Under the pieces are notes generated by a model. It searched no databases, was not told the origin of the DNA, and saw only the letters and a list, made by a program, of their open reading frames with translations. From positions 1-40,366 of the forward strand of contig DYML01000007.1 in the NCBI GenBank assembly GCA_020721605.1: a stretch of DNA of 40,366 nt. Reading direction: 5' to 3'. Positions 4,805-39,305 of the stretch are shown here, one piece after another; the stretch's first letter is position 1; each line of letters opens with the position of its first letter. Made by a program: the position numbers and the translations under genes. Source of the stretch: Anaerolinea thermophila. GTDB taxonomy: Bacteria > Chloroflexota > Anaerolineae > Anaerolineales > Villigracilaceae.

Positions 4805-6259
4805 ATGAGCAATGCTTGGCAGACTTTCCTCCTTATCTCACCTTGGTTTTTATATTTGCTTTTAATCATAGGCTTGGCGTGGATTTATCTGGCAACCTCT
4901 GCAAACAGTGGCTTTAGGGGAGTGATAACCTACCTGACACATTTGCTTATTTTTGTTGTAGGGTGGGGTTTGGGAAAATGGCTGGGAATTTTACTAATTT
5001 CATTTCCTATATTAATTTACTATTACTATATGCTATTCCATCTTTCCATGGTGGTAGTCCCAATCTCTGACCCCGATATTTTTAGCGATTGGTGGCTACG
5101 TTTTTTAATCTTCGTTCGTTACCAATGGGGCGTTCAATATCCGCATTGGATGACAGCAGAAACAACAGGCGGAAAAATTGAAAAACGGATTAAAGGCGAT
5201 CAGTTTTCTTTTTTTACCCCTGGGTTGATCTCCGCACGTTCACATCAAGTAATAGGAATCACTACCGGCATGACGTTTTCTCGCGTGCCAAACCCAGGCA
5301 CGATCTTCACCAAGCGCTATGAAAGCCCCCTGGCAGTTGTGGATTTAAGAACCCAAATACGGTCTGCCTGGATTGAAGTAGTATCCAGCGATGGCATACC
5401 ATTTTGGGCATTATTATTTACTGCCTTCCGAGTAGACCAAGAAAATTGGAGCCGAGAACTGTATCACAAGTTGCGCAGACAAAACCCCCTATTTGAAAAC
5501 GCGCACAAGCCAGACTATCAACAAGGCGCCTATCCCTTTTCCAAACCGAGGCTTCAGGCTTTATTCAGCACCATCGGAGTCAGTTCACCTGAGAACATAA
5601 ATGAAGCGCCGCGAACCCTCTCATGGGATGAGCGGGCGTTTAATCAAATTGAAAAGACCGCACGCGAAGCGCTTTCGCAGCGCAAAATTAATGAATTATG
5701 GCAGCCCCAGAACGATAATGATGGCGCCAGCGCAATGGATGAAATTGCCATTGAAATTAAAGAAAACTGCACCGATGACCTTCGGCGGCGCGGAATTTTG
5801 GTATACGCTTCCAGAATTGTGGATGTTGAATTCCACAAAAATGGAGAGCCACACCACGAGGAACAGGAAAAAAATGGAGACGCTGAAATCAACTCACCGC
5901 AAAATACAGAACAAGCGGGAGAAGAAGACCCAATTGCACAAAAGCAAATCACAGCCTGGAGCATTGACTGGCAGCGCGAGGCAACCAAAACCCGCGCAGA
6001 AGGCAAGGCACATGCCGACTTTCTAACGCAAGAAGCACATGCCTATGCATACACCACCCTGCTAACCGCTTTTGCCGAAGGCATGGAAGAAGCCCGCCTG
6101 CTCGACCCTCAACTTCCCCGCTATGTCATCGCCGTCAGATTTGTCGGCGCCCTCGAAAAAATAATCGGGCAACAATCAGATACTCAAGCCATAAGTGAAG
6201 CGCGCGCTTCACTTGATCAAATAAAAAAAATGATACCCTGGGGTATGGATGGAGGCTAG
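4805..6259 (+). CDS. membrane protein with SPFH/band-7-like domain
   Basis: N-terminal hydrophobic segments; then TIFTKRYESPLAVVDLRTQIRSAWIEVVSSDGIPFWALLFTAFRVD resembling the SPFH core; charged/helical C-terminus. Confidence 0.55.
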   Translation: MSNAWQTFLLISPWFLYLLLIIGLAWIYLATSANSGFRGVITYLTHLLIFVVGWGLGKWLGILLISFPILIYYYYMLFHLSMVVVPISDPDIFSDWWLRFLIFVRYQWGVQYPHWMTAETTGGKIEKRIKGDQFSFFTPGLISARSHQVIGITTGMTFSRVPNPGTIFTKRYESPLAVVDLRTQIRSAWIEVVSSDGIPFWALLFTAFRVDQENWSRELYHKLRRQNPLFENAHKPDYQQGAYPFSKPRLQALFSTIGVSSPENINEAPRTLSWDERAFNQIEKTAREALSQRKINELWQPQNDNDGASAMDEIAIEIKENCTDDLRRRGILVYASRIVDVEFHKNGEPHHEEQEKNGDAEINSPQNTEQAGEEDPIAQKQITAWSIDWQREATKTRAEGKAHADFLTQEAHAYAYTTLLTAFAEGMEEARLLDPQLPRYVIAVRFVGALEKIIGQQSDTQAISEARASLDQIKKMIPWGMDGG

Positions 6260-6264
6260 CCAAC

Positions 6265-7590
6265 ATGTCTTTTGAACGCGGTAACGAATCTGTCAGCACC
6301 TGGCTGCGTTTCTATTTTGCCATTCGCTCCCTAAACCGCAGTTTTCGTCAAATTCTGCTTGTGAGCATTCCTTTAATAGCCATTGCCATGTGGGTTTCTT
6401 TTGTCTTCCTACTCTTTTTCCATCTTGACGGACATGCGCCCGAATTTACAGAAAAGCCGTCATTTTTTTCCTACCTGATCTTTACGCTGCGCTTTGCCCT
6501 GCCTGCAATACTATCAATTTTAATTGGCGTTTATTTTTTGTTAAACAGGGCGCATGAATATATTTTCACTCTCTACCAGCCTTTGCCTGAAACCAAATTA
6601 GAAATAAAGCAACGCATCTGGCATCGGCTTTGGGGCTGGCATGGACTTCTTCTATTTCAAAACTATATGGTTGTGAACAGCACCAACCTCGAACCGAGCA
6701 ATCATTGGAGCCTGTGGCTTGGCGGTCCTGCTTTTTTAATTATTTATGATGGATTCGCCGTTTACCTGGAACGCGGCAATCGCTTCTCGCGCATCGTTGG
6801 CGCCTTTCCCATTACCTATCTTGATGCGCGCGAAACGATAAAAGGAATCGTTGATCTGCGCCCTCACACACGCTGCGGCAAAGTGACAGCGTGGAGCAAA
6901 GACGGCATTCGCATTGAATTTAAAATATGTGTTGAATTTCAAATTGAACCTGGGCTGCCAACCCACAATGCAAATGAAAAACTACTCTACCCTTTCAACC
7001 CGCTCGCTGTGCGAAAAGCAGTTGAATACACGGCTGTCGGCGCGCACGATGGAAAATTGCAAGAAGTAGACTGGTGTGAAGGCGCCATGGGCAGAGTTAA
7101 AGGAATTATTGGACGGCACGTTTGCAGCCGCCGTATTGATGAATTATTCTTAAAAAACGGAGGCGGAGGACAAATGCTTTCGCCCACTGTAACTACAGAA
7201 TTAATGGAAAAAATAAACGCGCGTCTTGTCAAAGATGCGGGCACACGAATGCTCAGTTTACAAATTACAGATATTACCATCCCCCTCGGCGTGCGCCGTC
7301 AGCGGCTGGATGTGTGGGAGGCTGAAAAAGATAGTTTGATTACCCGTGTTCGGGGCGAATCACAGGCGTATGAAATACGCACAAATGAAGCCGCAGTGGC
7401 AAAAGGTCAGCGTGATCTCATTGTGGCAATTGCAAAAAATTTAAAGAGAATAGACCCATCCCACTTTCCCGAACCTTTGCTTTTATCTGTATCGGGCATT
7501 TTAGATCAAGGATTAAGAGACCCATTGGTTCAAACCTATATGGCAAAGGGAACCTTAGATTCTTTGAAAAAAATTCAAGATCTACTCTAA
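6265..7590 (+). CDS. membrane protein with SPFH/band-7-like domain (paralogue of upstream gene)
   Basis: Two or more TM helices, then LIIYDGFAVYLERGNRFSRIVGAFPITYLDARETIKGIVDLRPHTRCGKVTAWSKDGIRIEFKICVEFQI and an EAEKDSLITRVRGESQAYEIRTNEAA helical region typical of SPFH proteins. Confidence 0.65.
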   Translation: MSFERGNESVSTWLRFYFAIRSLNRSFRQILLVSIPLIAIAMWVSFVFLLFFHLDGHAPEFTEKPSFFSYLIFTLRFALPAILSILIGVYFLLNRAHEYIFTLYQPLPETKLEIKQRIWHRLWGWHGLLLFQNYMVVNSTNLEPSNHWSLWLGGPAFLIIYDGFAVYLERGNRFSRIVGAFPITYLDARETIKGIVDLRPHTRCGKVTAWSKDGIRIEFKICVEFQIEPGLPTHNANEKLLYPFNPLAVRKAVEYTAVGAHDGKLQEVDWCEGAMGRVKGIIGRHVCSRRIDELFLKNGGGGQMLSPTVTTELMEKINARLVKDAGTRMLSLQITDITIPLGVRRQRLDVWEAEKDSLITRVRGESQAYEIRTNEAAVAKGQRDLIVAIAKNLKRIDPSHFPEPLLLSVSGILDQGLRDPLVQTYMAKGTLDSLKKIQDLL

Positions 7591-7608
7591 CCTGTTTTCT
7601 ACGAGGAT

Positions 7609-8616
7609 ATGATGAACAATGAAATTACCGAGATATTGCAAGAGTATCTCCTCATTGAAGAAGATTCCTTAAAACATATTTTGCTGGATATATTGGATCT
7701 GTGCAAAAGCGAAAGGGGCGCCAGCGACGCCATTGTTCAACTTGAATCCACCCTGGAAGATTACTCTTCCGGTCTCGAATTTCTTGACCGCGTTCCCCTT
7801 TATTACATATTTTTATCGTATGCACAATATAAATGGGGCGAATTCCCCAACTCTATAAATTCGGCTTCCAACGCGCTTCAAGGCTTTAAACAAAAAAACA
7901 ACATTAGAAACAGCGTCATTGCCCTGTGGATGCGCGCACTACTCCACCAGGAAAGCGGTCATATTGACGCGGCGAGAGACGACACCGCCAGTGGAATTAA
8001 TTTGGCTGAGAGAGAATTGGAAGACAGCAAACGCACCAGTCATTATAAAGAATTAGAAGACTCCAAAATTATTTATTCACGAATGCTCGCTCTTCGTCAA
8101 TGCCTAAATTCCGGTTTTTCAAAATCATCGTACGCTCCCCAGCCGCAATTTTCATTCCTGTCTTTTCCAATTTACACACTTCACATCACACCCGAAGGAA
8201 AAATTGCATATGAAAACGCTCCCCAGGGTGAAGTAATTGTTCAAACTTTAACCATCAAAGGTTTGCCGCACACAATCCATAGCCTCAGCAATTGGTCCGA
8301 AGTAATTATGCGCCCGGCTGCCTATCGTTGGCTCCAAATTCAAGGGGACGGAATGGACAACGCCAGACCCATCCCCATTTTAGACGGAGATTGTGTCCTC
8401 GTAATAGACATCCCGCGCGGAGATTACAAACCGCACTACGGAGAAATTGTCATTGCCGCCAGACATACCACAGACAATAAAGAAGAACCCGCGCTGCTCA
8501 AACGCTTTAACCGTGAAGGGCTATGCTCTGAAAGCAAAGAAAACCACCCGATCATTGCGCTGCAAGATGTATCCCTTTATGGCTTGGTAATTGCAGTTGC
8601 AAAACAGGTTAAATAA
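7609..8616 (+). CDS. helical/TPR-like N-terminus with S24/LexA-like C-terminal domain
   Basis: C-terminal LQIQGDGMDNARPIPILDGDCVLVIDIPRGDYKPHYGEIVIA...ALLKRF resembles S24 (GDSM...DGDxVLV...GxIVxA...KR); N-terminus helical repeat-like. Confidence 0.6.
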   Translation: MMNNEITEILQEYLLIEEDSLKHILLDILDLCKSERGASDAIVQLESTLEDYSSGLEFLDRVPLYYIFLSYAQYKWGEFPNSINSASNALQGFKQKNNIRNSVIALWMRALLHQESGHIDAARDDTASGINLAERELEDSKRTSHYKELEDSKIIYSRMLALRQCLNSGFSKSSYAPQPQFSFLSFPIYTLHITPEGKIAYENAPQGEVIVQTLTIKGLPHTIHSLSNWSEVIMRPAAYRWLQIQGDGMDNARPIPILDGDCVLVIDIPRGDYKPHYGEIVIAARHTTDNKEEPALLKRFNREGLCSESKENHPIIALQDVSLYGLVIAVAKQVK

Positions 8617-8662
8617 ATTTTATAGCGCGGCTTATTGGTGAAAAACTCAAATCACCACAAGA

Positions 8663-8710
8663 CAACACATCAAAAATGAACTGAAACGCCAGTTCATCTT
8701 TGATGTGTTG
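8663..8710. repeat. 21-bp near-perfect inverted repeat (hairpin) with 6-nt loop
   Basis: CAACACATCAAAAATGAACTG-AAACGC-CAGTTCATCTTTGATGTGTTG, one mismatch; no clear following T-run. Confidence 0.85.
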
Positions 8711-8969
8711 AATATGATGCCATCGCCTCCTTTTGATCTTGAAAATTTGACTTTTTTCATACCATCGACTCAGGCGGAACTGCATTGTGTACCGCAACCC
8801 TGACTCGTTAGGCTCAACCTATTTGCGATGCTTTTTACTGCTGGTCTCAACTAACTACAGTGTACAGGGTTTCGGTCAGCCAAATCAGACGCCTTGCTTG
8901 GATATTTCTGGCGCACAAATATCTTGTATCTTACACAAATCTAACCAGTAAAAAAATAAATGGAAAATT

Positions 8970-8997
8970 TTGTGATTGTGTTGAACTGCTATATAAT
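8970..8997 (+). promoter_or_regulatory. putative sigma70-type promoter upstream of leader ORF and membrane NTPase
   Basis: TTGTGA (8970-8975), 16-nt spacer, TATAAT (8992-8997). Confidence 0.45.
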
Positions 8998-9084
8998 AAA
9001 TTAAGAGTTGGAATAACAGCGCATTAAAATTCGCCGCCCAACCACAGGCTCATGTCATTAATCCCCATCAGGGAGATGTGAATT

Positions 9085-9141
9085 ATGCCGACTAAAAATC
9101 AAATAAAAATGTTTGAAAACATCATTTCAAAGGGGGCGTGA
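9085..9141 (+). CDS. possible 18-aa leader peptide MPTKNQIKMFENIISKGA, overlapping the start of the NTPase gene
   Basis: ATG at 9085 with GGGAG upstream; TGA at 9139-9141 overlaps ATG at 9141 of the next gene (TGATG/ATGA-type coupling). Confidence 0.35.
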   Translation: MPTKNQIKMFENIISKGA

Positions 9142-11468
9142 TGAAATATACCAAATTTTGGACTCCGCCCGCCTGGCTGGAGCCATCCTTTATTTTTATG
9201 GCATTTTTTGTTGCCGCCACAGCAGCGATGGCGCTTGTATTGTGGTTTCTCGTCACCTTTGTGGTTCCTTTTAATTTATACACCAAACAAACTGACTCTA
9301 TTATTTTGAACAATGGTCAGACGCTTCAAGTTGAATATCCAAACTTGGTATTGGTTGAAAACACACCAGCATACATTACTTTCATACTCCACGGCGAATC
9401 AAACGCAGTCGTTCCCGCGTCTTTCACCGTACAAATTCCCGTGGGATTAACCGTCGTAGAACCCTCAGCGCAGGCTCACACCAACAGTTTAACCATAACC
9501 GCCTTCGGGCTGGGCAGCGCAACCAAGCCAGACCAAATAAAAATTGGGGTTACAAATTCACACTCAATGAACAGCCTTTTGCTTTTTGTTCGCCGCCCTT
9601 TGATCATTAACTCAAATTTATTTTTGAGCGCACAAAAAATCCAAATAGGAATTGAGACCATTCGCTGGGTATCTGCCCGTGAAATTGTAAAAAATACAAT
9701 TAATGAAAAAAGCACCCTCATTTTATTAGTAACCGGATTTTTATCTGGCGCGGGAGCATTAATACTTCAATACACCAAAACATATCGTGACCGTCTCCGC
9801 GAAGATCGACAAAAAAAGGAAGAAAGATTTTATAAACTTCTCCAGCAAGATTTTGAAGGCGCTATAAGCGCATTTTTGCGAACTGGAAACGGCAGCCAAT
9901 TGCAAGATGATGATTTCATCATGTACAAAACATTGGTGGAGCAATTTAATTGGTATCATAAATTATCCGCCAATATCCGTGAAAATCTTAAAAGAAAAAA
10001 ATTTACCGAAGCCAGACGGCGGGTGAAAAATTTAAAAGAACTGAGCAAACTTGTCTCCGAACTGCAGGATGAGGAAAAAAATGAAATACAGATTTTATAT
10101 GATCTGTGCGAACTCGCCTCCATTTATGACCGCAAAAATAAAACATTGTCTCTGCAAGAGGTCGGCATTCTCAAATCGGCTTATCGGCGTTGGAATGATC
10201 TAGCCTCCATCATCACCGACTTAATTCAAGACTTCTCCTCTTCTCCGGGAAATTATTTTTTATTGCGTGATGTATTTCAACAAGACAAAGACGGCAAAAA
10301 GGTCTTACAAAATTCAAACCTGCAATATGTGATGGGAAAATGGCCCCAAAAAAAATTTGACGAACTTGGCAAGGAAGCGCTTGAAATTGCATATTCGCTT
10401 CACTGGCGACTGTCATGGTCTGGCATGGAAAGAAATTTATCAGAGAAAATTCAACGATGGCTTTCAGGGCATCGGTGTGAAACGCCAGACGCTCATACCA
10501 ATTTGTATCTCGGCTCTGAATATGCAGAGTTGGACTACAAATTAACAGAAATTGCCATTCAACATCCCGTTTTTAACCAAATCCACGAACCCTCTCCCTC
10601 CATTGTTTTTGGCGCAGAAGGCATGGGAAAAACAGCCTCTGCGTTGCGATCCGTTAAGATGTGTCAAAATTGGGCAAACTCAGGCGGGCGGCTTCCAAGA
10701 GTCTTCCCTGTTTATGCTCCCTTTGAACCTGGCGTCAGCGCAAAAAATTTTCTGGTAAAAAAAATTTCACACACGCTGATTAATTTTATATCTGATAACC
10801 CCAGAAGATTTCTCAACGCCCCTTCTGCTCAAAAGACTGCGATGGGGAGGTTAATGTTGCATTACGCAAAAAACATGGACATTTTGCGTCTCAACTTTTT
10901 TAGTTCCCCGTTTGAAAATTTTTTTAGCGACACAGAGCAGGTTCTTCAGTATATTTCAAACCTTGGCTATTCACCCGCAAATAGAATGGAAAAGGATGAA
11001 ATGCTAAATCTTCTTTATCTGGCTCTACCAGACGGCTTTGATCATATTTATTTTTTTTGGGATATTCAGAGTTGCGCCCCGCAAGCCGATATGATCGGTC
11101 AGGTAAAAGAAATTGAAAACCTGGCACTGCCGCTCTCAAGACAGAATATCTTTATCAAAATATTTTGCCCGCTGACAGCAAAGTACGCCTTAAAAAAACT
11201 GAACGGATTTCACCATCTAAGCGATATTAACTGGACAGAATCTCAATTAAGAGAATTAATAGAAACACGGATCAAAATGTTTGATGTTCTCTGGGAACGT
11301 GGGGTTGAAGATTCGGTCAGCCTGGTGGTATCTGCCGCGTCCTCTTCGCCGCGCCTCGCCATTCGGCTCTTGATTGCCTTGTTTGATTATGTGGACAAAC
11401 ACTTTCAAGAAGGCGATAAATTAAGCAAATATATATTTGATGAAGTTGTATCCACCCTGCAAGAGTAA
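9138..11468 (+). CDS. membrane-anchored P-loop NTPase: TM - extracytoplasmic domain - TM - helical region - NTPase
   Basis: TM segments near the N-terminus and near ILLVTGFLSGAGALIL; ~150-aa intervening domain; Walker A SIVFGAEGMGKTASAL; likely true start ATG at 9141. Confidence 0.7.
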   Translation: MMKYTKFWTPPAWLEPSFIFMAFFVAATAAMALVLWFLVTFVVPFNLYTKQTDSIILNNGQTLQVEYPNLVLVENTPAYITFILHGESNAVVPASFTVQIPVGLTVVEPSAQAHTNSLTITAFGLGSATKPDQIKIGVTNSHSMNSLLLFVRRPLIINSNLFLSAQKIQIGIETIRWVSAREIVKNTINEKSTLILLVTGFLSGAGALILQYTKTYRDRLREDRQKKEERFYKLLQQDFEGAISAFLRTGNGSQLQDDDFIMYKTLVEQFNWYHKLSANIRENLKRKKFTEARRRVKNLKELSKLVSELQDEEKNEIQILYDLCELASIYDRKNKTLSLQEVGILKSAYRRWNDLASIITDLIQDFSSSPGNYFLLRDVFQQDKDGKKVLQNSNLQYVMGKWPQKKFDELGKEALEIAYSLHWRLSWSGMERNLSEKIQRWLSGHRCETPDAHTNLYLGSEYAELDYKLTEIAIQHPVFNQIHEPSPSIVFGAEGMGKTASALRSVKMCQNWANSGGRLPRVFPVYAPFEPGVSAKNFLVKKISHTLINFISDNPRRFLNAPSAQKTAMGRLMLHYAKNMDILRLNFFSSPFENFFSDTEQVLQYISNLGYSPANRMEKDEMLNLLYLALPDGFDHIYFFWDIQSCAPQADMIGQVKEIENLALPLSRQNIFIKIFCPLTAKYALKKLNGFHHLSDINWTESQLRELIETRIKMFDVLWERGVEDSVSLVVSAASSSPRLAIRLLIALFDYVDKHFQEGDKLSKYIFDEVVSTLQE

Positions 11469-11525
11469 TGATAAAAATTATTTACACACGTACCGCAGCC
11501 ATCTATTGCCGGGTTTTATAAAAAA

Positions 11526-12869
11526 ATGCACAAAGATAAAGGTCTCTCAATTTTTATGACAAAAAATGCCGAGGCTGAACCCTGGCTAACTCAACACGCC
11601 TTTGTTGCCCCGCCAGATTTTGAATCCTTCACCAACTTTAACTCCAGTATTATTTATGTAAAAACAGGGGATGGAAAAACTGCCCTCTGCCAGGCTTTGT
11701 CTCAATATGCTCTTAATCAAATTCAATGTATGCCGGTTTCCTGGTCGCCCAATTTAACCTGCAATTTGCATGGTTCAGTCACAGACCTGGCTATGGCACA
11801 CTTCTCGAATATTCTTTCTGCCTGTGCCAGCCAAACTTTACATCGGTTGATGATTGCCCCCCAAAAACAGCAAAAGGAATGTCTGGCGGCTGGTTTTATC
11901 CCCCAGTTTCTACATCAATTTGCCATCGGCGAAGATCAAAAAATTATAAAAAAACAATTCAGCGCATCGAAGCCGTTTTCAATGAGCAAAAATATAGACC
12001 TGGTTACGCTTGCAACACAACTCATTAATGGCATTAAAAACATGGGGTTTTCTGGCGGAATTTGGATCATCGTGGACGGAGCAACGTGGACTTCCGCCAT
12101 CGAAAAACAAACCACGGTAGATGCTCTGCTCGCAATTCTCTCCACACTTCGCTTATTTGAAATTCAGGGTTTTCATTTTAAGATGGTTTTGCCCATTGAA
12201 TTGGAAAGAAACTTTTCTGAAATTCTCTCCAAAGATAAATGTCGGGTGATGATCTCCAGGGTTTCATGGGAAAAGAAACATTTGCAGCAGATGATTGAGA
12301 AACGCCTGCGGTTTGCCTTACAAGACACCGAAGCCAGCGTAGCGCAGATCTACGCTGCCGATGACTTATTTACCTGGCTTACCGCATGTAGCGGACTTTC
12401 GCCGCGCGGCTGGCTGGAATATTTCCGCCCCATATTTGCCACCGTTTGGGAAATTTATCAAACAGAGGGGCTGCGTATGCTGCAAAAAGATGAATGGATC
12501 GCAGCCCGAAAACGATCCTCTTTGCAATTAAGGTTTTACCCGGACTTAAATCAAATTGTGGTTGGGCAAAACGCCCCACAAACACTTTCGCAAGAAGAGA
12601 TGGCAATTTTTTCTTACTTGTATAAAAACGAAAATCAATATTGCACCAAACGCGAAATTTACAACAAGGCATATCTGCCATTTAATGTAAATAAGCAGAG
12701 CAAAGAAATAAGCGCACAGGACGATCTTCCAAAAGAATATGACGACCTCGTAAACACAGCCATTCACCGTTTGCGCAAATCCATAGAACCATTGCCCAAA
12801 GAACCTGTCTTTATTACCATGAAGAAAAACCTGGGCTACCGCCTTTCCCTTCAGGCATTTTACGAATAA
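11526..12869 (+). CDS. P-loop NTPase-like protein with C-terminal OmpR/PhoB-type winged-helix domain
   Basis: SIIYVKTGDGKTALCQAL (Walker-A-like), WIIVDGA; C-terminal LSQEEMAIFSYLYKNENQYCTKREIYNKAY...DDLVNTAIHRLRKSIEP...FITMKKNLGYRLS as in Trans_reg_C. Confidence 0.7.
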   Translation: MHKDKGLSIFMTKNAEAEPWLTQHAFVAPPDFESFTNFNSSIIYVKTGDGKTALCQALSQYALNQIQCMPVSWSPNLTCNLHGSVTDLAMAHFSNILSACASQTLHRLMIAPQKQQKECLAAGFIPQFLHQFAIGEDQKIIKKQFSASKPFSMSKNIDLVTLATQLINGIKNMGFSGGIWIIVDGATWTSAIEKQTTVDALLAILSTLRLFEIQGFHFKMVLPIELERNFSEILSKDKCRVMISRVSWEKKHLQQMIEKRLRFALQDTEASVAQIYAADDLFTWLTACSGLSPRGWLEYFRPIFATVWEIYQTEGLRMLQKDEWIAARKRSSLQLRFYPDLNQIVVGQNAPQTLSQEEMAIFSYLYKNENQYCTKREIYNKAYLPFNVNKQSKEISAQDDLPKEYDDLVNTAIHRLRKSIEPLPKEPVFITMKKNLGYRLSLQAFYE

Positions 12870-13013
12870 ACCATGTTAGTTTGTTGTTGGTTGGGCGCAA
12901 GATACATAAAAGACCCACAAGAGTTTTTTTCGCTACAATGATGCAATCTTAAGACCCTGTTAAAACGGGCGCTGTTTATATTTTATTTGCACTGTGATTT
13001 TGGCGCGGCTTGA

Positions 13014-14267
13014 ATGGTCTTTGACATGGACGAGATAAAAATAATGAGCAAAGAACAAAAAAAATCCATCCTGCCAGAAACCGCGCTCTCTAACTGGCTT
13101 TCCCGCATGGGATTGAATTTAAACCCTTTTGAATACATAGATGCCGGAAAAGACCCGCTGATTCCCAATTACCTGGTAGATCACGATCAATTTGCAAATG
13201 TGAGCGGCGACCAGCCATCTTTCATATTTGCGCCCGCCGGAGGCGGCAAGACCGCATTTCGCGTGCGGCTGGCGGGGGATTGCCGTGCGGGCAGGCAGGG
13301 TCACAAAATATTCCCTGTCATTTACCAGCCCACTGCGCCCGCTGTTCAAGGTCAAGATAACTATCAATTGGAAAAGACCCAGCGCACAGACCTGTTGCGC
13401 TTTGCCTGCCAGGAATTGCTCTTGTACCTGGTTTATCACCCATACTTGCTTGAAGAAATGCCCCTGGCGCTTCGCCAAAATTTTCTCCAAAATTTATCCT
13501 GGGGCTTGGATTTTCCACTTGCCTATTATCTTAACCAAATAAACAAAGCAAAGAGCCTCGAACCCATTCTCGCCGCATTTGATCCTACTGCCCGTTCATT
13601 GCCCAACCCGCCAGGCATGGAAGATATTAAATATCTTTATAAAAAATTAAACCACTCCCCCCCTCCGACTGGGCGTAAACCGAAAATTGAAAAAAGATTT
13701 AATATCCTATTTGACCTGATTCTCAACCAACTAAAGTTCGAATCTGTTTATCTTTTGATTGATGGCGTAGACGCATTCTTTGAAACCGCAAACAACCCCC
13801 AGTGCACACTTGGTACAATTTCCTGGCTGTTAAATAATGCGCCGCGTTGGCAGCAGGAGCATATTTACCCAAAATATTTTTTGCCCGATCAAATGTATTC
13901 CGCAGTGATGGCAGACCCAGGTTTTCATCTATTGACTTCGATGAGCAAAATCACTATCATTAAATGGAACGCAAAAGCGCTTGGCAAAGTAATTCAAAAA
14001 AGATTACAAGATGCCAGCGACGGCAAGTTTGACAGCCTAACAGCCATCAGCGACCGCGCCCTGCGCGCCTCTGGACATTCACCAGAAGAAGTAATAATCA
14101 CCGATTTTTGCAGGCTAAAAAAAATAAGCCCGCGCAGCCTAATTCGGTCTGTAGATTGGTTGTTCACCCACCATGTTCGGCATGAACAGCCGCAAGCCAA
14201 ACTTACCCCGCAAGACCTGCAAGCCGTGCGCAAATGGATTCGCAGCGAGTATTCTGCGAAAAAATAA
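13014..14267 (+). CDS. P-loop NTPase (STAND/AAA-like)
   Basis: GLNLNPFEYIDAGKDPLIPNYLVDHDQF...SFIFAPAGGGKTAFRVRL Walker A; VYLLIDGVDAFF Walker B; start may be ATG 13044. Confidence 0.75.
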   Translation: MVFDMDEIKIMSKEQKKSILPETALSNWLSRMGLNLNPFEYIDAGKDPLIPNYLVDHDQFANVSGDQPSFIFAPAGGGKTAFRVRLAGDCRAGRQGHKIFPVIYQPTAPAVQGQDNYQLEKTQRTDLLRFACQELLLYLVYHPYLLEEMPLALRQNFLQNLSWGLDFPLAYYLNQINKAKSLEPILAAFDPTARSLPNPPGMEDIKYLYKKLNHSPPPTGRKPKIEKRFNILFDLILNQLKFESVYLLIDGVDAFFETANNPQCTLGTISWLLNNAPRWQQEHIYPKYFLPDQMYSAVMADPGFHLLTSMSKITIIKWNAKALGKVIQKRLQDASDGKFDSLTAISDRALRASGHSPEEVIITDFCRLKKISPRSLIRSVDWLFTHHVRHEQPQAKLTPQDLQAVRKWIRSEYSAKK

Positions 14268-14361
14268 TGTACCAAGCCGATTTTGATCGGCGGACAATCT
14301 GGTTTTGGCGACTGGGTTAAGGTTGCAGTTGCTCACATCACTGGCGTGGGGAGCGTTTTCA

Positions 14362-15564
14362 ATGGCTACTTTCAGTTCTGATGAGTTTGTAAACCGCGAA
14401 GAAGAACTTAAGCACATAAAAGATAAAATTGTTAGGCTGGCGCGAGGCGACCCTTTTGCCCCAAAAGAAAGGGTCTTTCACTTGGTTGGACCATCGGGAA
14501 TAGGCAAAAGTTGCCTGCTTGAGGAGTGTTATCAATTTGTCAATTCTCTCCCGCAATCCATTCCCATATTGATCAAGTCCTACCCGCTTAGAAAAAAAGA
14601 CGGAGAATTTATAGAAAATTTTCTATTGGCAGTCTGCGAAGAATTTTATAAAAATCAAAAAAAAATAGTTTTAAACAAAAGCGGAAGAACATTACTTAAA
14701 TTTGGCGCCGATATTACAAAGCGTATTAACGAATATGCTGAAGAGCATGTTGTTGTTCTTCTTTTAGATGAAATGGACATCCATCAAAAAGAAGTATTGC
14801 AGTCAATTGAAGAACATTTATTGGAAAATCTGCTCGAAAACAGCAAGCGCGTTATGCTCATTACCGCAGGCAGAGAACCCGCAGCGCTAAATGTTTTTTC
14901 TCTACGCCCCGGACCGGAGAATATATTCAAACTCGCTGTCTTTGACGAAAAAAATACAACCAGACAGTTGGAAAAACTCAATCCAAAATTAGTGCGCATC
15001 GCGGGCAAAATTAGAAAATTAGGCGGGGGAGTTCCTGGAAATAACAAAAGGTTGGCTGGGCTGGTATCTGGAGAACCTTTGGATATTTTGGATGACCTGC
15101 AAGCCATTCAATTTTTATTGATTGATATTAAGCAAAAAATTGAAAAGCCATTTCATTTCATAGTGGAAGCCATTTGCATTTTGTCCGATTTTCACCCCGA
15201 AGATGTTGCGCCCTTACTTGAAAATCACCCGGCGTTGGGCGGGCAATGGGACGAGATTCGAATTAGAGAAGTATTTACCAATCTCAGACAGGCTCGAATT
15301 GGACCAGGCGGTTTAATTAATTGGGATAAAGAAAAAAGAAGCTGGGTGATGGAAGAACCAACACGTAAAATATTTGAGTTGGAATTGCAGCTGCAAGATG
15401 TAAACTTATGGAAGCAGTTACATTGCACCGCGTATCAAATGTATCAAAAGTGGGGCGAGGAATTAAATTCGCAACTGTACAGACAAAAAGCAATATATCA
15501 TCGGCAGTGCCTGCAATCTATGGGGTACGATTGTCTTAATCTCCAAGCGAGGGATGACCAATGA
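14362..15564 (+). CDS. AAA/STAND-like P-loop NTPase
   Basis: FVNREEELKHIKDKI, VFHLVGPSGIGKSCLLEECY Walker A, VVVLLLDEMDIHQ Walker B; ATG 14362 preferred over listed 14305. Confidence 0.8.
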   Translation: MATFSSDEFVNREEELKHIKDKIVRLARGDPFAPKERVFHLVGPSGIGKSCLLEECYQFVNSLPQSIPILIKSYPLRKKDGEFIENFLLAVCEEFYKNQKKIVLNKSGRTLLKFGADITKRINEYAEEHVVVLLLDEMDIHQKEVLQSIEEHLLENLLENSKRVMLITAGREPAALNVFSLRPGPENIFKLAVFDEKNTTRQLEKLNPKLVRIAGKIRKLGGGVPGNNKRLAGLVSGEPLDILDDLQAIQFLLIDIKQKIEKPFHFIVEAICILSDFHPEDVAPLLENHPALGGQWDEIRIREVFTNLRQARIGPGGLINWDKEKRSWVMEEPTRKIFELELQLQDVNLWKQLHCTAYQMYQKWGEELNSQLYRQKAIYHRQCLQSMGYDCLNLQARDDQ

Positions 15565-18500
15565 AAAAACAAGAGCATGGAATGGAATACGCGAGCGCCC
15601 GCGCAACCCCCAGCCTGGTGGGGCGCAAAGAAATCCTCGGCATTATCAATAGAGCCATTGAAGATAAAAGTGACCAAACCCAGATCATCTATATCACTGC
15701 ACGAGGCGGCATGGGAAAGACCCGCCTGCTTGAGGAAGTATTAAAACATTGGAACACGGCAAATAAAAGCAAATCAAAAAAGACAACCAAACTGATCAGC
15801 GTTCAACACCTTATAGATTTGTATCACACGCATACGCATAGTGAAGAGGGCTTGATTGCCGAAATTGTAGATGCGCTGGACCCACAATCAAAATTGTTTA
15901 CCCGCTACCCTAAAAAACGAGCGGAACTCACACACATGAAATATCAAAAAGGAGAAATACAGCCCATTCAACGCCTGCGTAAAGAAATGGAAGATGTCTT
16001 TTTGGAAGAATTGAATGAACTGGGCGGAAAATACGCCAAGATTGTTTTGGTCTTTGACACAGCCGAAGTTCTAACCTATGAGACCGACCGAGTTCAAAAA
16101 GCGCTGGGTCTGGCAGATCACCCCATTGGCGTGGCACGCTGGCTCACACAGGGATTTCTTAATAAAATTCGCAACGCAGTGGTATTAATTGCAGGACGAC
16201 CAGAAGACACATCCAAACAATTGATGGCAGAATTGACAAAGACCGTCTCAAAGGTGCTGGAGTACCCCCTGCCTGGTTTTAGTGAAGACGAAACATTTGA
16301 GTATTTTAAAGTAGTCACCGAAGCGGTTCGCGCTGAAAATGCGCAAAGCGCAAAGCGTATTGAAAGTATTCCAGAACAAACATTGCGGGCAATTCATCAC
16401 CTTACCGGCGGAGAGCCGTTTGTCCTTGCTCTATTAATTGACTACCTCGCCATTGCAAAAGAAATTCCATCCTTGACAGACCGAAGCCCGGAAATTTTTC
16501 GTGAAGAACTGCGCGACCTGATCGTGCAGACCATTCAAGAGGATTGGCGCCCATTAGATCAGGTTGTTGAGGCGCTTTCGTGGGCAACAAAAGGCATGGG
16601 CGCCGAACTTCTTGCCTGGGTTCTTCATCACCACGAACCAACTGAAGAAGAGATTAATAATGCCCAAAATAACATCCACGCCTTGCGCCAGTGGGAACGG
16701 CGGCTATCCTTTGTAAAAATTCGCGCGGCAGATGACCTGGTTTTTCTTCAAGACGAAATGTATGCCTTAATGGAGAAAATTCACAAAGAACCAAACGAAC
16801 TTGTGAAACGAAACAAAACATATAAAGACATCCTCGCATTTTATGAATGGAAAATTGGTCAGGCTCGCGCCAAAATTGAAGAGATGGAAAGAAACCTGCA
16901 ACTAATAGGAGAAATTACATCAGACAAATTAGCGCAGCCAGAGCAAAGCAACATTGCGCCCGAAGAAGAGAAAATGCGCAGAGCACGCGCTCTTTTACAG
17001 GCGTATCAAGTAGAACAGGTATATTACACATTGCAGGCAAATGTGCTGGAAGGTTTTAGACTGTATTCTCAATACGCTGAAGAGTCTTTTCAAAGCCGCG
17101 ATTTAAACCTGTGGCTCTTATTGCGTGACGAATTACTTCGCTTTGCCAATAAACCCGGCAGCCAATCTTCACTGCCTCTGAATGACATTGAGTCAGACAT
17201 AGGAGTTCGATGGATAAAAATTAGCCTGGCGGATGATGATTATATGGAAGCACAGCGCCAAATTACGCGCTTTCGTGAAACTTGCGCCGACCTGTTGCAA
17301 GCAGGAAGTTACGCCGACTTAAATTTAAAAATATGGGAAGCGCAGATTTTAATATATACCGGAAAGCAAAACGAGAAGGCGCAAGAACTGCTACATGAGA
17401 TTTTAACAAAGTCAGACCGCCTGCCTTCTGAAACCAGCCTAGATCAGTGGCGCATCAGTTTCTTAAGAGCCTACGCTATTTATTGGCAAGGCTATTTATA
17501 TCGAATGAAAGGCGAATTTAAGCAGGCAGTGGATAAATACTTGCTGGGGCTGCCCATCTGGCGCAACCTGAACTTCAAACTTGAAGCAGCCACCAACCTA
17601 AATGACCTCTCGTGGGCAGAAGCGGAAATGGGGGCGTTTGAATCCGCGCTTGTGCATTGTAACGACGCATTAAATCTGCGGCGCAAATTGGGCAGGCGCT
17701 ATCTGGTTGCCTTTAGCCTAAACACCCTGGGCTTAATTGAAACGCGGGCTGGTGCCCCCGAAAAAGCGCGCTTTCGCTGCGAGCAGGCGCTAAAAATCTT
17801 TCGCGGAATGGAAGATGCGCGTGGAACAGGTCTGGCTTGTCACGCCCTCGCAGAATCTCTGCGTAGAATAACCAACGGCGATTTATTAAACTACGAACAA
17901 ACCATAGACCACTTGCGCTTAGCCGCCGCCCGCGCCGAAGAAGCCGTTGGGATTTTTAGCAAACAAGTCCTTGAACCATTGCGCCTGACAGAGGCTTATA
18001 TTGAAGTTGGCTGTGTCTACCGAGAATGGGCGCGACATTTACCGCTTCGTAATTTTGAATTACTGGACAAAGTTGAAAAATGCCGCGCCGCGTACGAATC
18101 TGCTGTCTCTGTTGCCCAAGAAGGCGGCTACGAATACCGCGCCATAGATGCCCTCGTCAATTTAGCTTGGCTTTATTATTATGTGGGCGATATTGAAAGC
18201 GCAAAAAATGTACTGCGATCCAGAGTGCGTAGTTACCTGGGAGATGAGCATCTGTACACAACTGCACACGGTGTAGATGAAAGCCAGGCGCCAACCTCCT
18301 GGAATTGGGTGCAACTGGGCAAAACCAATGTACTGCTGGGAATGATTCATTTTGATGAATACAAGCAGGTTAATGGATTAAAAGAAAAAAATATGGCAGA
18401 ACAAAAACTGCGGCAAGCAGCCCACAACTGGACACTTTCCATGGCATATAATAGTTTGTACGGCAAAGACTTCCGCGATTTTGCCAAAGGACGAGACAAA

Positions 18501-18647
18501 GTGTATGAACGCCTGGGGCAACTCAACACCGAGGAAATGCGTTGGATTGTAGAAAGCATGAAGCAAACTCATATTAACTATCACATAGCAGAAGAGCAGA
18601 GAGCCTTTGAACAATTGTTAAAAAATCGCTTTGGATTATTGGTTTGA
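15561..18647 (+). CDS. STAND-like NTPase with C-terminal TPR repeats
   Basis: SLVGRKEILGIINRAIED, IIYITARGGMGKTRLLEEVL Walker A, IVLVFDTAEVL Walker B, then TPR-like repeats (LSWAEAEMGAFESALVHCNDALNLRRKLGRRYLVAFSLNTLGLIETRAGAPEKARFRCEQALKIF); ATGA overlap with upstream gene. Confidence 0.85.
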   Translation: MKKQEHGMEYASARATPSLVGRKEILGIINRAIEDKSDQTQIIYITARGGMGKTRLLEEVLKHWNTANKSKSKKTTKLISVQHLIDLYHTHTHSEEGLIAEIVDALDPQSKLFTRYPKKRAELTHMKYQKGEIQPIQRLRKEMEDVFLEELNELGGKYAKIVLVFDTAEVLTYETDRVQKALGLADHPIGVARWLTQGFLNKIRNAVVLIAGRPEDTSKQLMAELTKTVSKVLEYPLPGFSEDETFEYFKVVTEAVRAENAQSAKRIESIPEQTLRAIHHLTGGEPFVLALLIDYLAIAKEIPSLTDRSPEIFREELRDLIVQTIQEDWRPLDQVVEALSWATKGMGAELLAWVLHHHEPTEEEINNAQNNIHALRQWERRLSFVKIRAADDLVFLQDEMYALMEKIHKEPNELVKRNKTYKDILAFYEWKIGQARAKIEEMERNLQLIGEITSDKLAQPEQSNIAPEEEKMRRARALLQAYQVEQVYYTLQANVLEGFRLYSQYAEESFQSRDLNLWLLLRDELLRFANKPGSQSSLPLNDIESDIGVRWIKISLADDDYMEAQRQITRFRETCADLLQAGSYADLNLKIWEAQILIYTGKQNEKAQELLHEILTKSDRLPSETSLDQWRISFLRAYAIYWQGYLYRMKGEFKQAVDKYLLGLPIWRNLNFKLEAATNLNDLSWAEAEMGAFESALVHCNDALNLRRKLGRRYLVAFSLNTLGLIETRAGAPEKARFRCEQALKIFRGMEDARGTGLACHALAESLRRITNGDLLNYEQTIDHLRLAAARAEEAVGIFSKQVLEPLRLTEAYIEVGCVYREWARHLPLRNFELLDKVEKCRAAYESAVSVAQEGGYEYRAIDALVNLAWLYYYVGDIESAKNVLRSRVRSYLGDEHLYTTAHGVDESQAPTSWNWVQLGKTNVLLGMIHFDEYKQVNGLKEKNMAEQKLRQAAHNWTLSMAYNSLYGKDFRDFAKGRDKVYERLGQLNTEEMRWIVESMKQTHINYHIAEEQRAFEQLLKNRFGLLV

Positions 18648-18655
18648 GGACTAAA

Positions 18656-20179
18656 ATGAAACCCCATCTCACCAACGCCTTAAACACAAGAAGGGTTAAA
18701 CGGGAGAAAATAATGAGCAGAAACCCAATAAAAGTATTAATGGCAAATTCCGCCAGCCCGCAACCCAAAGGCGAACAATGTGACTGCGCCTGCGCCGAAA
18801 GCACTTCTGCAATTTTGCCGGCTCTCAATTCAGGGACTTTTCTTGGCATCTCTAACTTGTACTATCAAAAAATAACCCCTGAATATGAAATGGCATTTAA
18901 CCCGAACATTGGAAACGGCATGATGTTAATCAATTCTTCGGCAAAAGAATTGCTGAAAGCGTTTTCTCCCCCACGACCAATTAAACCCGCCGACCAGTCT
19001 CAAATCGTCAATCAAATGATCGGCATTGGTTTATTAACAGCGCCGAATGTTGATTCTGAAATTCAACTTCACCCCACGCCAAACATGCTTGGCGCATGGC
19101 TTCATCTAACCGATCGCTGTAACTTGCGCTGTTCTTATTGCTACCTTCCCCACGCCCACCAAGATATATCACTTAAAACAGGACGCGCTGTGCTGGACGC
19201 TGTTTTTCGCTCTGCGGTTGTGAACGGATTTAAGCAGATTAAACTAAAATACGCGGGCGGCGAACCTCTGTTGCGTTTTTCTCTGCTGCAAGAATTACAC
19301 TCATACGCACAGCAATTGGCAGAATGGCACGGGTTACAACTGGACGGAATTGTGCTCAGCAACGGCACACTGCTCACCGCCGAAATGATTACGACCTTAA
19401 AAAAACTTGACCTGCGGTTGATGATCTCCCTCGATGGGCTGGGGCAGCATCACGATAACTTGCGCCCCTACCAAAGCGGGCGCGGGTCTTTTGCCGATGT
19501 AGCCGCCGCGATAGACCTTGCCATTTTACACGGGCTGCCACCCAATATTTCCGTTACCGTTGGCGGTCATAATGTAGAAGGGCTGCCAGATCTTCTGCAC
19601 TGGATTTTAGCGCGTAACCTTCCATATAATTTAAACTTCTACCGCCCCAATGACCTTTCTGCTTTATCAGGTGACCTGCAATTGGATGAGCGCAAGATGA
19701 TTCGCGGTATGCTGGCGGCATTTAAGGTGATCGAACAAAAAATGCCGCGCCAAAGTTTTTTAGCGGGGTTAATAGACCGTGCCGATTTTTCAACGCCGCA
19801 CACACACACCTGCGGTGTAGGGCAAAATTACCTCGTGTTTAATTCAATGGGGCAGGCTGCCAAATGCCAAATGCATATTCAAAAACCAATTACAGATGTT
19901 CATGCAGAAGACCCGCTTGCCGTCATTCGTGCCGATCAAACTGGAATTTCAAACTTGTCTGTTAAAGAAAAAGAAGGCTGCCAGACCTGTGAATGGAAAT
20001 ATTGGTGCGCAGGCGGCTGCCCTCTTACAACTTATCGCGCAACGGGGCGCTATGATGTTAAATCACCAAATTGCAATATCTATAAGGCGCTGTACCCTGA
20101 AGTTTTGCGGCTCGAAGGTCTGCGGCTATTAAAGTATCAAAACGACCCTGAAGTTGTCAGCGTATTTCAACCATCATAA
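18656..20179 (+). CDS. radical SAM/SPASM domain protein with PqqD/RRE-like N-terminal region
   Basis: LHLTDRCNLRCSYCY (CxxxCxxC), KLKYAGGEPLLR, SPASM-type CGVGQNYLVFNSMGQAAKCQ...GCQTCEWKYWCAGGCPL...PNCNIYKALYP; ATG 18656 with GAGGA upstream, alternative ATG 18714 with GGGAG. Confidence 0.9.
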   Translation: MKPHLTNALNTRRVKREKIMSRNPIKVLMANSASPQPKGEQCDCACAESTSAILPALNSGTFLGISNLYYQKITPEYEMAFNPNIGNGMMLINSSAKELLKAFSPPRPIKPADQSQIVNQMIGIGLLTAPNVDSEIQLHPTPNMLGAWLHLTDRCNLRCSYCYLPHAHQDISLKTGRAVLDAVFRSAVVNGFKQIKLKYAGGEPLLRFSLLQELHSYAQQLAEWHGLQLDGIVLSNGTLLTAEMITTLKKLDLRLMISLDGLGQHHDNLRPYQSGRGSFADVAAAIDLAILHGLPPNISVTVGGHNVEGLPDLLHWILARNLPYNLNFYRPNDLSALSGDLQLDERKMIRGMLAAFKVIEQKMPRQSFLAGLIDRADFSTPHTHTCGVGQNYLVFNSMGQAAKCQMHIQKPITDVHAEDPLAVIRADQTGISNLSVKEKEGCQTCEWKYWCAGGCPLTTYRATGRYDVKSPNCNIYKALYPEVLRLEGLRLLKYQNDPEVVSVFQPS

Positions 20180-37551: not shown

Positions 37552-38805
37552 CTAGCGTTTCAAATTAACCAATTCCTGCAAAATCTCATCCGAGGTGGTG
37601 ATAATACGGGACGAAGCCTGAAAACCACGCTGCGCAAGAATCATATTGGTGAACTCCTGCGCCATGTCTACATTGGATGCTTCAAGATAACTGGAGGCAA
37701 TCGCGCCGCGCCCGCCGGTGGCGGCAGCGCCAATTTGAGGATCGCCAGAGTTAAGACCAGCAATGAAACTGGTATCATCCGCTTTGACCAAGCCGGTGGG
37801 ATTTGTGAAACGCGCCAGGGCAACCTGCCCAACCTTCTCTGCCATTCCATTGGAATAAATCAACGAGATAACGCCGTCATTGGGCGAGATGTACACATCC
37901 GATACTGAGCCGGCAGCCAGACCATCCTGACTGGTGGCAGAGGCGCTGCTGGCAGAAGCCAACTGTGTCAGGTTGGAAAAGTCGAGAGTTAAGGCAAGCG
38001 GGTCTGCGCCAGCCGAAACAGGAATATCAATTGCGGTGCCGCTGGTTGATGCGGTCAAGTCAATTTGACCATTGGCATCAAATGTGATCGTGCCATCGCC
38101 CGTTCCCGCCACAGGCGGATCCACAGTCGTGTCCATCACCTGCCAGGTCCACACGTTGGTTGGGACAGCCGCCGTACCGCCGCGTGTAAAACGGATCGAG
38201 GCGGTTTGCAAAGCGCCCAACGAGTCGTACATGCCCACCGCAACGGTATCCGTCCCGCCGCCCTCCGTGTTTGCGCTTAAGTTGCCGCCCAGCAAAACAT
38301 TTTCGGTCGCCTTCGCCAGAGTTTTATCGGTATCAATCTGAATATCATCCACAGTCAGATCGGTGTCAATATTTCCATCTGCATCTGCCAGCCAGCCTTG
38401 CGTGCGCAAACCAGAGGCAGAATTGACCAAATTTCCTTCCGAATCAAGACTCATCGAACCTTCACGCGAATAGCGCCGAACTGCGTCTTGTCCGTAGATA
38501 AAGAAGCCATCACCCTGCACGCCCAAATCCATATTTCTGCCCGTGCTTTGCAAGGCGCCCTGGGTAAAGTTGGAAGAGATGTACCCCAAATTTACGCCAA
38601 GACCAATTTGCGTGGGATTGGTGCCGCCCAGCGCATCGGTAGGTGCGGAACCCTGACTCAAAGTTTGAGCGAATTGATCCTGAGAAAGCACACGGCTGGC
38701 TTTGAAGCCTGTGGTGTTGGCGTTTGCCAGGTTGTTGGAAACAACATCCAAATACTTCTGTTGCAGGCTTAAAGAACTAATTGCGGTATACATTGAGCGA
38801 ATCAT
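37552..38805 (-). CDS. flgE: flagellar hook protein FlgE
   Basis: MIRSMYTAISSLSLQQKYLDVVSNNLANANTTGFKASRV, GVQGDGFFI, SYLEASNVDMAQEFTNMILAQRGFQASSRIITTSDEILQELVNLKR. Confidence 0.93.
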   Translation of the reverse strand: MIRSMYTAISSLSLQQKYLDVVSNNLANANTTGFKASRVLSQDQFAQTLSQGSAPTDALGGTNPTQIGLGVNLGYISSNFTQGALQSTGRNMDLGVQGDGFFIYGQDAVRRYSREGSMSLDSEGNLVNSASGLRTQGWLADADGNIDTDLTVDDIQIDTDKTLAKATENVLLGGNLSANTEGGGTDTVAVGMYDSLGALQTASIRFTRGGTAAVPTNVWTWQVMDTTVDPPVAGTGDGTITFDANGQIDLTASTSGTAIDIPVSAGADPLALTLDFSNLTQLASASSASATSQDGLAAGSVSDVYISPNDGVISLIYSNGMAEKVGQVALARFTNPTGLVKADDTSFIAGLNSGDPQIGAAATGGRGAIASSYLEASNVDMAQEFTNMILAQRGFQASSRIITTSDEILQELVNLKR

Positions 38806-38873
38806 GATATTTTCTCCTTGGTTGGTTTTCAGGCTTCCTCCAGGAGGGCCAGCCTGTGGGTTAAATAAACGGA

Positions 38874-39302
38874 TTATCCTTTTAGATCAATAGACGACTT
38901 CACGCTGTCTTCTGCGGGGTCAGCAAAAACAACACTGTCAATTTGGGTAAACACCCCTTCGCCGCGTTGATTTTTGTCCAGGGCGGTCACAACGGTTCGG
39001 CTCTGAATATTGACAATGAAAGCCAAATCATCCACCATGACCAGCGAAGATTTTCCACCGCGTTTTTCTGCCTTGTCAATGGCGCTCGAAAGGCGGTTTA
39101 CATTTTCACTGCTCATATTAATCTCACGGCTTTGCAGGCGGCTTTGCGCGTGGTTTGAAAATCGAACGCCCTGTACATTTTCAAGCGTCTCCAAAAAACT
39201 GGCTGCGCCCTGCACAGATGCAGCGGCTGTGCTGGCTGGTTTTACAGACTGTGCGCCAACACCATTTACCCGTCCGAGTTGAACGCCAAATGGCTCTGTC
39301 AT
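38874..39302 (-). CDS. flagellar operon protein (TIGR02530-like)
   Basis: VRFSNHAQSRLQSREINMSSENVNRLSSAIDKAEKRGGKSSLVMVDDLAFIVNIQSRTVVTALDKNQRGEGVFTQIDSVVF. Confidence 0.88.
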   Translation of the reverse strand: MTEPFGVQLGRVNGVGAQSVKPASTAAASVQGAASFLETLENVQGVRFSNHAQSRLQSREINMSSENVNRLSSAIDKAEKRGGKSSLVMVDDLAFIVNIQSRTVVTALDKNQRGEGVFTQIDSVVFADPAEDSVKSSIDLKG

Positions 39303-39305
39303 ATT

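What the first reader, a model, noticed from the sequence alone, without database searches (positions are those of the whole stretch)
4805..20179. Candidate undescribed multi-NTPase / SPFH / radical-SAM system
Ten consecutive + strand genes without a recognisable housekeeping function: SPFH-like x2, TPR-S24-like, coupled mini-ORF, membrane NTPase, NTPase-wHTH, two NTPases, STAND-TPR, radical SAM/SPASM. Five P-loop proteins of differing architecture next to membrane-scaffold-like proteins and a peptide-modification-type radical enzyme do not match any system I can name. The last three genes are tightly packed (14362-20179, two overlapping junctions). Hypothesis: membrane-linked signalling or conflict (defence/RiPP-like) module. 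It could equally be two or three adjacent units: 4805-8616, 9085-12869, 13014-20179.
Basis: partly seen in the sequence, partly recalled or inferred. Interest (0 to 1): 0.85.

Follow-up and report, generated by a model that had tools for sequence, protein, structure and literature searches.

The report
Self-peptide radical-SAM, NTPase conflict operon
Six neighbouring genes form a bacterial system, conserved across the phylum Chloroflexota and apparently not described before, in which a chain of NTP-hydrolysing proteins is wired to interchangeable 'kill' domains and to a peptide-modifying radical enzyme that seems to carry its own cysteine-rich substrate fused to its front end.

Summary
The ORFs are real, but the block is two units. 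4805-8616 (SPFH1, SPFH2, TPR-S24) is a separate three-gene module; it occurs in none of the other ~110 loci of the second unit. 9085-20179 is one conserved system. Its order, first-gene NTPase > NTPase-wHTH > NTPase > NTPase > STAND-TPR > radical SAM/SPASM, recurs across Chloroflexota, and STAND-TPR lies beside the radical SAM gene in 90 of 94 testable loci.

First, the first gene carries interchangeable N-terminal effector domains in relatives (TIR, SIR2, CHAT, caspase, trypsin-like, C25); here the slot holds a membrane region. This is the logic of NTP-dependent conflict (immune/cell-death) systems. Second, the radical SAM protein has a hypervariable N-terminal tail with up to 4 copies of D-C-A-C (110 copies in 111 proteins; shuffles give 0.16; 0 of 73 control enzymes), followed by an RRE-like domain. 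No conserved separate precursor gene was found, but one distant relative lacks the tail and has a separate 35-aa CDAC peptide gene just upstream.

Best reading: a self-substrate radical SAM maturase (precursor fused to enzyme) inside a polymorphic-effector conflict system. Chemistry and phage defence are untested inference.

The parts
9085..9141 (+). 18-codon mini-ORF (MPTKNQIKMFENIISKGA) overlapping the start of the next gene; probable translational coupling leader
   Evidence: sequence; not tested for conservation
9138..11468 (+). first-gene NTPase ('memNTP'): TM-like segments near residues 16 and 192 around a beta-rich segment, C-terminal Sll1717/DS41_1-like P-loop domain; the N-terminal part is the effector slot of the system
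   Evidence: in relatives this slot holds TIR, CHAT, caspase, trypsin or SIR2 domains
11526..12869 (+). NTPase-wHTH (Sll1717/DS41_1-like P-loop domain + PhoB-type winged helix)
   Evidence: conserved position
13014..14267 (+). NTP6, Sll1717/DS41_1-like P-loop NTPase
   Evidence: conserved position
14305..15564 (+). NTP7, AAA_16/ORC-like NTPase (likely start ATG 14362)
   Evidence: next to STAND8 in most loci
15561..18647 (+). STAND8, AAA_16/NACHT-type NTPase with C-terminal TPRs
   Evidence: within 2.5 kb of the radical SAM gene in 90 of 94 loci
18713..20179 (+). rSAM9, tail - RRE-like domain - radical SAM - 7-Cys SPASM (frame open from 18644)
   Evidence: start
18734..18745 (+). leader-like strand IKVL in the rSAM9 tail
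   Evidence: AlphaFold strand E31-34 in a low-confidence region; hydrophobic strand upstream of the motif in 94 of 100 relatives vs 74.3 shuffled
18782..18793 (+). DCAC motif (CDCACAE, holds C-X3-E), proposed self-substrate core
   Evidence: invariant D47 C48 A49 C50 in a 12-member alignment; statistics
18833..19033 (+). RRE/PqqD-like domain (about residues 64-130)
   Evidence: strands 66-97 then helices 98-127 in the model; CteB profile match begins at profile position 77
4805..8616 (+). separate neighbouring module: SPFH1, SPFH2, TPR-S24; not part of the system

Best explanation
9085-20179 is a Chloroflexota NTP-dependent conflict (immune or cell-death) system with a built-in peptide-modification step. 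Inferred mechanism: the Sll1717-like NTPases (first gene, NTPase-wHTH, NTP6) and the NTP7/STAND-TPR pair form an NTP-switched complex that senses an insult and releases the effector at the N terminus of the first gene (a membrane region here; TIR, SIR2, CHAT, caspase or trypsin-like domains in relatives). The radical SAM/SPASM enzyme binds its own N-terminal hydrophobic strand with its RRE-like domain and cross-links Cys to nearby Asp/Glu in its own DCAC repeats (PapB/CteB-type thioether chemistry). The modified tail then acts as tag, ligand or released peptide, most simply read by the TPRs of STAND8. Shown: gene order, effector swapping, the motif, its repeats and enrichment, enzyme class. 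Inferred: self-modification, bond type, who reads the tail, and the trigger.
For: Operon: same order in relatives; STAND8 adjacent in 90/94 loci, NTP7 in 70/92, at least one Sll1717-like NTPase in 49/81. Rate: 43/399 phylum genomes, 75/396 class genomes. Effector swap: 41 first genes give 7 TIR, 7 SIR2, 3 CHAT, 2 trypsin, 1 C14, 1 C25 plus EAD7 and TCAD2 adaptors. L266 (TIR) and L267 (TM) share 75% identical rSAM9, yet their first genes align only from residue 170/234 onward. Substrate-like tail: 110 DCAC and 223 [DE]C in 111 tails; shuffles 0.16 (max 2) and 55.7 (max 76); controls 0/73 DCAC. Tandem units such as L290 x4 and L301 x3. Tail mostly evolves faster than the enzyme core but keeps nearly all cysteines in close pairs. 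C-X3-D/E at 45 of 110 DCAC against 11% acidic background, the PapB motif (PMC9413430). All 10 radical SAM + SPASM cysteines are invariant without the tail. Split form: L091 lacks the tail and has MNFKNAQIINDKKIKADKKILYGQCDACGNDNNLE behind AAAGGAGGTG just upstream. No conserved separate small ORF elsewhere.
Against: No biochemistry or phage assay. The split precursor rests on one long-branched MAG locus that has no STAND8 nearby. The AlphaFold model is shallow (8 sequences, mean pLDDT 65) and the tail is below 50 except near the strand. Second Cys and C-X3-D/E are not universal; deep branches have only one [DE]C. No protease or exporter is regularly present to release a peptide. In some clades the operon is syntenic between species, which fits a housekeeping role too. 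In the window itself no effector domain was recognised.
Confidence: 0.58

Rival explanations
1. The DCAC tail is not a substrate but a redox or metal switch (extra Fe-S or metal site, thiol sensor) that controls the radical SAM enzyme, which modifies some other protein or peptide.
For: Asp-Cys-x-Cys is a plausible metal ligand set; the tail is nearly always in cis; no released product or protease is evident.
Against: Copy number 0-4 and variable position; deep members have a single [DE]C; the enzyme's own cluster ligands are complete; tandem strand+core units look like a multi-core precursor; L091 encodes the segment as a separate gene.
Confidence: 0.2
2. The system is ordinary signalling or stress regulation rather than immunity; effector-like domains act on host targets in development or homeostasis.
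For: Conserved local synteny within some genera; a wHTH subunit; no match in plasmids or phages at the limits used.
Against: Effector domains are those of known defence and cell-death systems and are swapped between close relatives; distribution is patchy.
Confidence: 0.25
3. The enzyme acts on an unrecognised separate precursor peptide that is not in the locus or too divergent to see; the tail only recruits it.
For: Most radical SAM peptide maturases have separate precursors.
Against: No conserved small ORF near rSAM9 in 111 loci except clade-restricted, mostly alternative-frame ones.
Confidence: 0.12
4. All ten genes 4805-20179 are one SPFH-linked membrane system.
For: Same strand and direct adjacency in the window; a Band_7 protein lies downstream in L090.
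Against: SPFH1/SPFH2/TPR-S24 hit none of the other radical SAM loci; in other genomes the SPFH trio stands alone; there is a 468-bp gap between 8616 and 9085.
Confidence: 0.04

Closest known systems
Peptide-processing VMAP-/FtsH-ternary conflict systems (FxSxx peptide + radical SAM-SPASM + AP-ATPase-TPR; Kaur et al. 2020, PMC7159879)
   Same: STAND/AP-ATPase-TPR next to a radical SAM-SPASM maturase; swapped effector domains; class includes Chloroflexi
   Different: No vWA-MoxR-VMAP core in the window and no zincin peptidase; the precursor is not a separate gene; a Sll1717-like NTPase trio takes the core place
Ranthipeptide maturases PapB and CteB
   Same: Top NCBIfam hit (PapB) and top sequence and fold matches in the PDB (CteB); RRE + radical SAM + SPASM; Cys with Asp/Glu in the substrate motif (PapB)
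   Different: PapB score 126.5 against a cut-off of 340; substrate fused in cis; context is a conflict operon
Borosins (OphMA-type) and burpitide cyclases
   Same: Working principle: RiPP core fused to its own modifying enzyme
   Different: Different enzymes (N-methyltransferase, copper cyclase); in borosins the core is C-terminal
FxsB and HaaB/HaaT cyclophane systems
   Same: Radical SAM maturase in one cluster with a TPR protein; STAND8 hits HaaT weakly by its TPRs (2.6e-11)
   Different: Different motifs and separate precursors; far below family cut-offs
DS41_1 anti-phage protein / Sll1717-family ATPase
   Same: NTP6, NTPwHTH and memNTP match both models (DS41_1 5.8e-23 for NTP6)
   Different: All far below cut-off (81.6 vs 370 bits at best); gene context not compared

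Membership tests
Radical SAM/SPASM peptide maturase | CxxxCxxC radical SAM motif | tested here: met
   C159, C163, C166 invariant; PF04055 1.5e-14
Radical SAM/SPASM peptide maturase | 7-Cys SPASM motif for auxiliary clusters | tested here: met
   C390, C408, C446, C449, C455, C459, C477 invariant
Radical SAM/SPASM peptide maturase | RRE (PqqD-like) leader-binding domain | tested here: inconclusive
   Strand/helix pattern in the model and CteB match from position 77; no direct RRE profile hit obtained
Classical RiPP cluster | Separate precursor peptide gene | tested here: not met
   No conserved small ORF within 2.5 kb in 111 loci; candidate only in L091
PapB ranthipeptide maturase (NF047865) | Score above curated cut-off | tested here: not met
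   126.5 vs 340 bits
PapB ranthipeptide maturase (NF047865) | Cys-X3-Asp/Glu substrate motif | tested here: inconclusive
   Window CACAE fits; 45 of 110 DCAC copies fit
PapB ranthipeptide maturase (NF047865) | Cys-Asp/Glu thioether formed | not testable with these tools
   needs mass spectrometry
VMAP-/FtsH-ternary conflict system (Kaur 2020) | vWA + MoxR (+VMAP) core genes | tested here: not met
   None among the window operon proteins; vWA and MoxR-like genes seen next to L285 only
NTP-dependent conflict systems, broad class | NTPase/STAND core with swappable effector domains and EAD-type adaptors | tested here: met
   TIR, SIR2, CHAT, C14, trypsin, C25, EAD7, TCAD2 at the first gene of relatives; not recognisable in the window's own first gene
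NTP-dependent conflict systems, broad class | Anti-phage or cell-death activity | not testable with these tools
   experiment needed
DS41 anti-phage | Score above equivalog cut-off | tested here: not met
   81.6 vs 370 bits at best
Known defence systems in PADLOC | Match of the window proteins to a system model | tested here: not met
   Only weak BrxL, TPR, PtuA and viperin-type cross-matches
Borosin (fused RiPP precursor) | N-methyltransferase domain with C-terminal core | tested here: not met
   The enzyme is radical SAM/SPASM and the proposed core is N-terminal; only the working principle is alike

The most novel reading that the evidence does not exclude
A self-modifying radical SAM enzyme, its RiPP precursor (leader strand plus one to four DCAC cores) fused to its own N terminus, works as a covalent signalling part of a bacterial STAND-type immune complex with interchangeable effectors, conserved throughout Chloroflexota.
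Probability: 0.42. Interest if true: 0.95.

Novelty: new variant of a known kind. Interest (0 to 1): 0.85.

Why it matters
It would join two fields: radical SAM peptide chemistry and STAND/NLR-like bacterial immunity. A precursor fused to a radical SAM maturase would be, as far as the papers searched here show, the first case of the borosin principle in this enzyme superfamily, and the tandem DCAC units make the substrate question directly testable. The operon is also a phylum-wide candidate immune system with effectors (TIR, SIR2, caspase, trypsin) whose readouts are easy to assay.

Tried and rejected
Single ten-gene system: rejected. A separate precursor in the locus: searched, none conserved. 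Other split-precursor cases in the order of L091: none in 93 genomes. Spread on mobile elements: no match in plasmids (E<=1e-40) or phages (E<=1e-20), and only one weak partial viral-contig match. Exceptions to the motif were followed up: L204 has ETDCACP upstream in the same frame beyond the called start, L216 has ANDCTAP beyond a frame change; L092, L268, L273 and L295 lack the start of the protein; L279, L298 and L300 have CAC without the acid; several f30 members have NEC/DEC. A literature search for 'DS41' gave nothing. Long-branch joins in the tree (L091 with L309) are not used as evidence.
Full report
WHAT IS THERE. The window is a contig of a draft genome (G000:C93) whose relatives in genome contigs are titled Anaerolineales, Caldilineaceae and Roseiflexus, all Chloroflexota. 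Five proteins have P-loops. memNTP, NTPwHTH and NTP6 are distant members of the Sll1717/DS41_1 kind (below family cut-offs); NTP7 and STAND8 are AAA_16-like, STAND8 with C-terminal TPRs; the last protein is radical SAM/SPASM.

TWO UNITS, NOT ONE OR THREE. Searching 99 genomes of the same family with SPFH2 found 40 carriers, usually as an SPFH1-SPFH2-(TPR-S24) run. Searching with NTP6 found 14 carriers, mostly in a different neighbourhood: NTPwHTH-NTP6-NTP7-STAND8. Wider flanks showed the full order memNTP-NTPwHTH-NTP6-NTP7-STAND8-rSAM9. None of the other radical SAM loci holds the SPFH trio. So 4805-8616 is an independent neighbour and 9085-20179 is the system.

DISTRIBUTION. A profile of 12 rSAM9 proteins (A1) hit 43 of 399 genomes sampled over the phylum (E<=1e-40) and 75 of 396 sampled over the class (E<=1e-60). 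One scan of genome contigs gave Chloroflexota records and one Patescibacteria MAG as close relatives; the next hits are other radical SAM enzymes at about 25% identity. Of 111 rSAM9 loci collected (L088 and L278 are identical in the tree), 94 have 4 kb or more upstream; 90 of these have a STAND8 homologue within 2.5 kb. NTP7 is found in 70 of 92, at least one Sll1717-like NTPase in 49 of 81, all three in 22 of 81. The labels rest on profiles built from the window and the first loci. The own genome holds a second copy (L209).

EFFECTOR SLOT. The first gene keeps a C-terminal NTPase part but its N-terminal part changes. Among 41 first-gene proteins Pfam finds TIR_2 in 7, SIR2_2 in 7, CHAT in 3, Trypsin_2 in 2, and C14 caspase, C25, vWA, EAD7 and TCAD2 in one each (individual hits; PADLOC agrees with Thoeris ThsB-type TIR, caspase and CHAT models). 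In some loci the effector domain is a separate small gene rather than a fusion (SIR2 genes, the L292 TIR gene). L266 and L267 have 75% identical rSAM9 but a TIR in one and a TM region in the other, with first-gene similarity starting only after that part; L053 (TIR) and L052 (TM) behave the same way. In the window the slot holds two TM-like segments around a beta-rich stretch with no family match, so a membrane effector or envelope sensor is the local guess. SIR2+PNP genes and GNAT genes join in other clades.

THE TAIL OF THE RADICAL SAM PROTEIN. Aligning rSAM9 showed a hypervariable N-terminal tail in which only D-C-A-C is invariant. In 111 tails there are 110 DCAC and 223 [DE]C; 1000 shuffles give means of 0.16 and 55.7 (maxima 2 and 76); 73 control radical SAM enzymes from the same scan have no DCAC. 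Seventy-six proteins have DCAC, 101 have [DE]C, and the ten without are truncated, frame-disrupted, CAC variants or the split case. DCAC copies range from 0 to 4, often as tandem units of hydrophobic strand + spacer + core: L290 GENDCYAPDAPVRF / GEDDCFAPDAPVQF / GEDDCACAP / GENDCACAV; L301 ILWSSPT..ESDCACAE / VMLCSSP..DSDCACVE / VWRSSTTPDCDCACAE; L214 GDCACDSP twice. A hydrophobic strand lies upstream in 94 of 100 (shuffled 74.3), so that signal is modest. In close pairs the tail usually evolves faster than the enzyme core (dN/dS 0.09-0.80 against 0.03-0.29) while nearly all its cysteines stay. Behind the tail comes an RRE-like domain: the model shows strands 66-97 and helices 98-127 plus an isolated strand 31-34 = IKVL at low confidence, and the CteB match starts there. 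The best structural match is CteB, a ranthipeptide maturase, then TigE, ChlB and anSME.

SPLIT RELATIVE. In Patescibacteria locus L091 the enzyme begins at the RRE-like domain. Thirty-eight bases upstream of its start ends a 35-aa gene MNFKNAQIINDKKIKADKKILYGQCDACGNDNNLE with the ribosome-binding site AAAGGAGGTG. The fused N terminus of L268 (cut by the contig end) reads EGQCDACPAG. This is the pattern expected if the tail is a precursor peptide; it is one case and has no STAND8 beside it.

MECHANISM. PapB links Cys to Asp or Glu in C-X3-D/E motifs and tolerates spacings of 0 to 6 (PMC9413430). The window motif C-A-C-A-E fits, as do 45 of 110 DCAC copies. I therefore propose that rSAM9 cross-links its own tail. 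What reads it is inference: TPR regions are plausible peptide readers, STAND8 is the most constant partner, and Kaur et al. (PMC7159879) describe AP-ATPase-TPR proteins regularly beside peptide-processing genes, with radical SAM-SPASM enzymes for the FxSxx type. The conflict role is inferred from effector domains, not shown.

NOVELTY. Searches of the held papers found fused enzyme-precursors in borosins (and burpitide cyclases, partly from my own knowledge) but none in radical SAM enzymes, and no description of this operon. Absence there is not proof. I rate it a new variant of a known kind (NTP-dependent conflict system with peptide processing), with one part, the fused radical SAM precursor, that may be categorically new.

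Noticed in passing
window 4805-8616: Independent SPFH1-SPFH2-TPR-S24 module (SPFH2 relatives in 40 of 99 family genomes); in the window the S24 nucleophile motif reads GDGM where several relatives have GDSM, so this copy may be catalytically dead.
   Followed up: partly
L285:3482-11268: rSAM9 operon next to vWA and MoxR-like AAA genes, a possible bridge to the MoxR-vWA ternary conflict systems.
   Followed up: no
L209 (G000:C102:500-20400): Second, divergent rSAM9 operon in the same genome as the window, with its own DCAC tail.
   Followed up: partly
L220, L219, L222, L224 (family f30): SIR2-like gene upstream of NTP7 and a SIR2+PNP-phosphorylase gene downstream of rSAM9, in conserved synteny.
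   Followed up: partly
L269, L271, L274, L287, L294, L295, L304, L305: A related extra gene of about 160-270 aa between STAND8 and rSAM9; the L287 member is a GNAT acetyltransferase.
   Followed up: no
L309:13213-14475: rSAM9 with an extreme tail DYDCDDCACDCACDCDCACDCDYDC and no room for an RRE-like segment, beside a TPR protein and a type ISP restriction enzyme.
   Followed up: no
window 37552-40229: Flagellar-type genes (hook protein, FlgD-like, FliK-like) at the right end, suggesting a motile host (reading).
   Followed up: no
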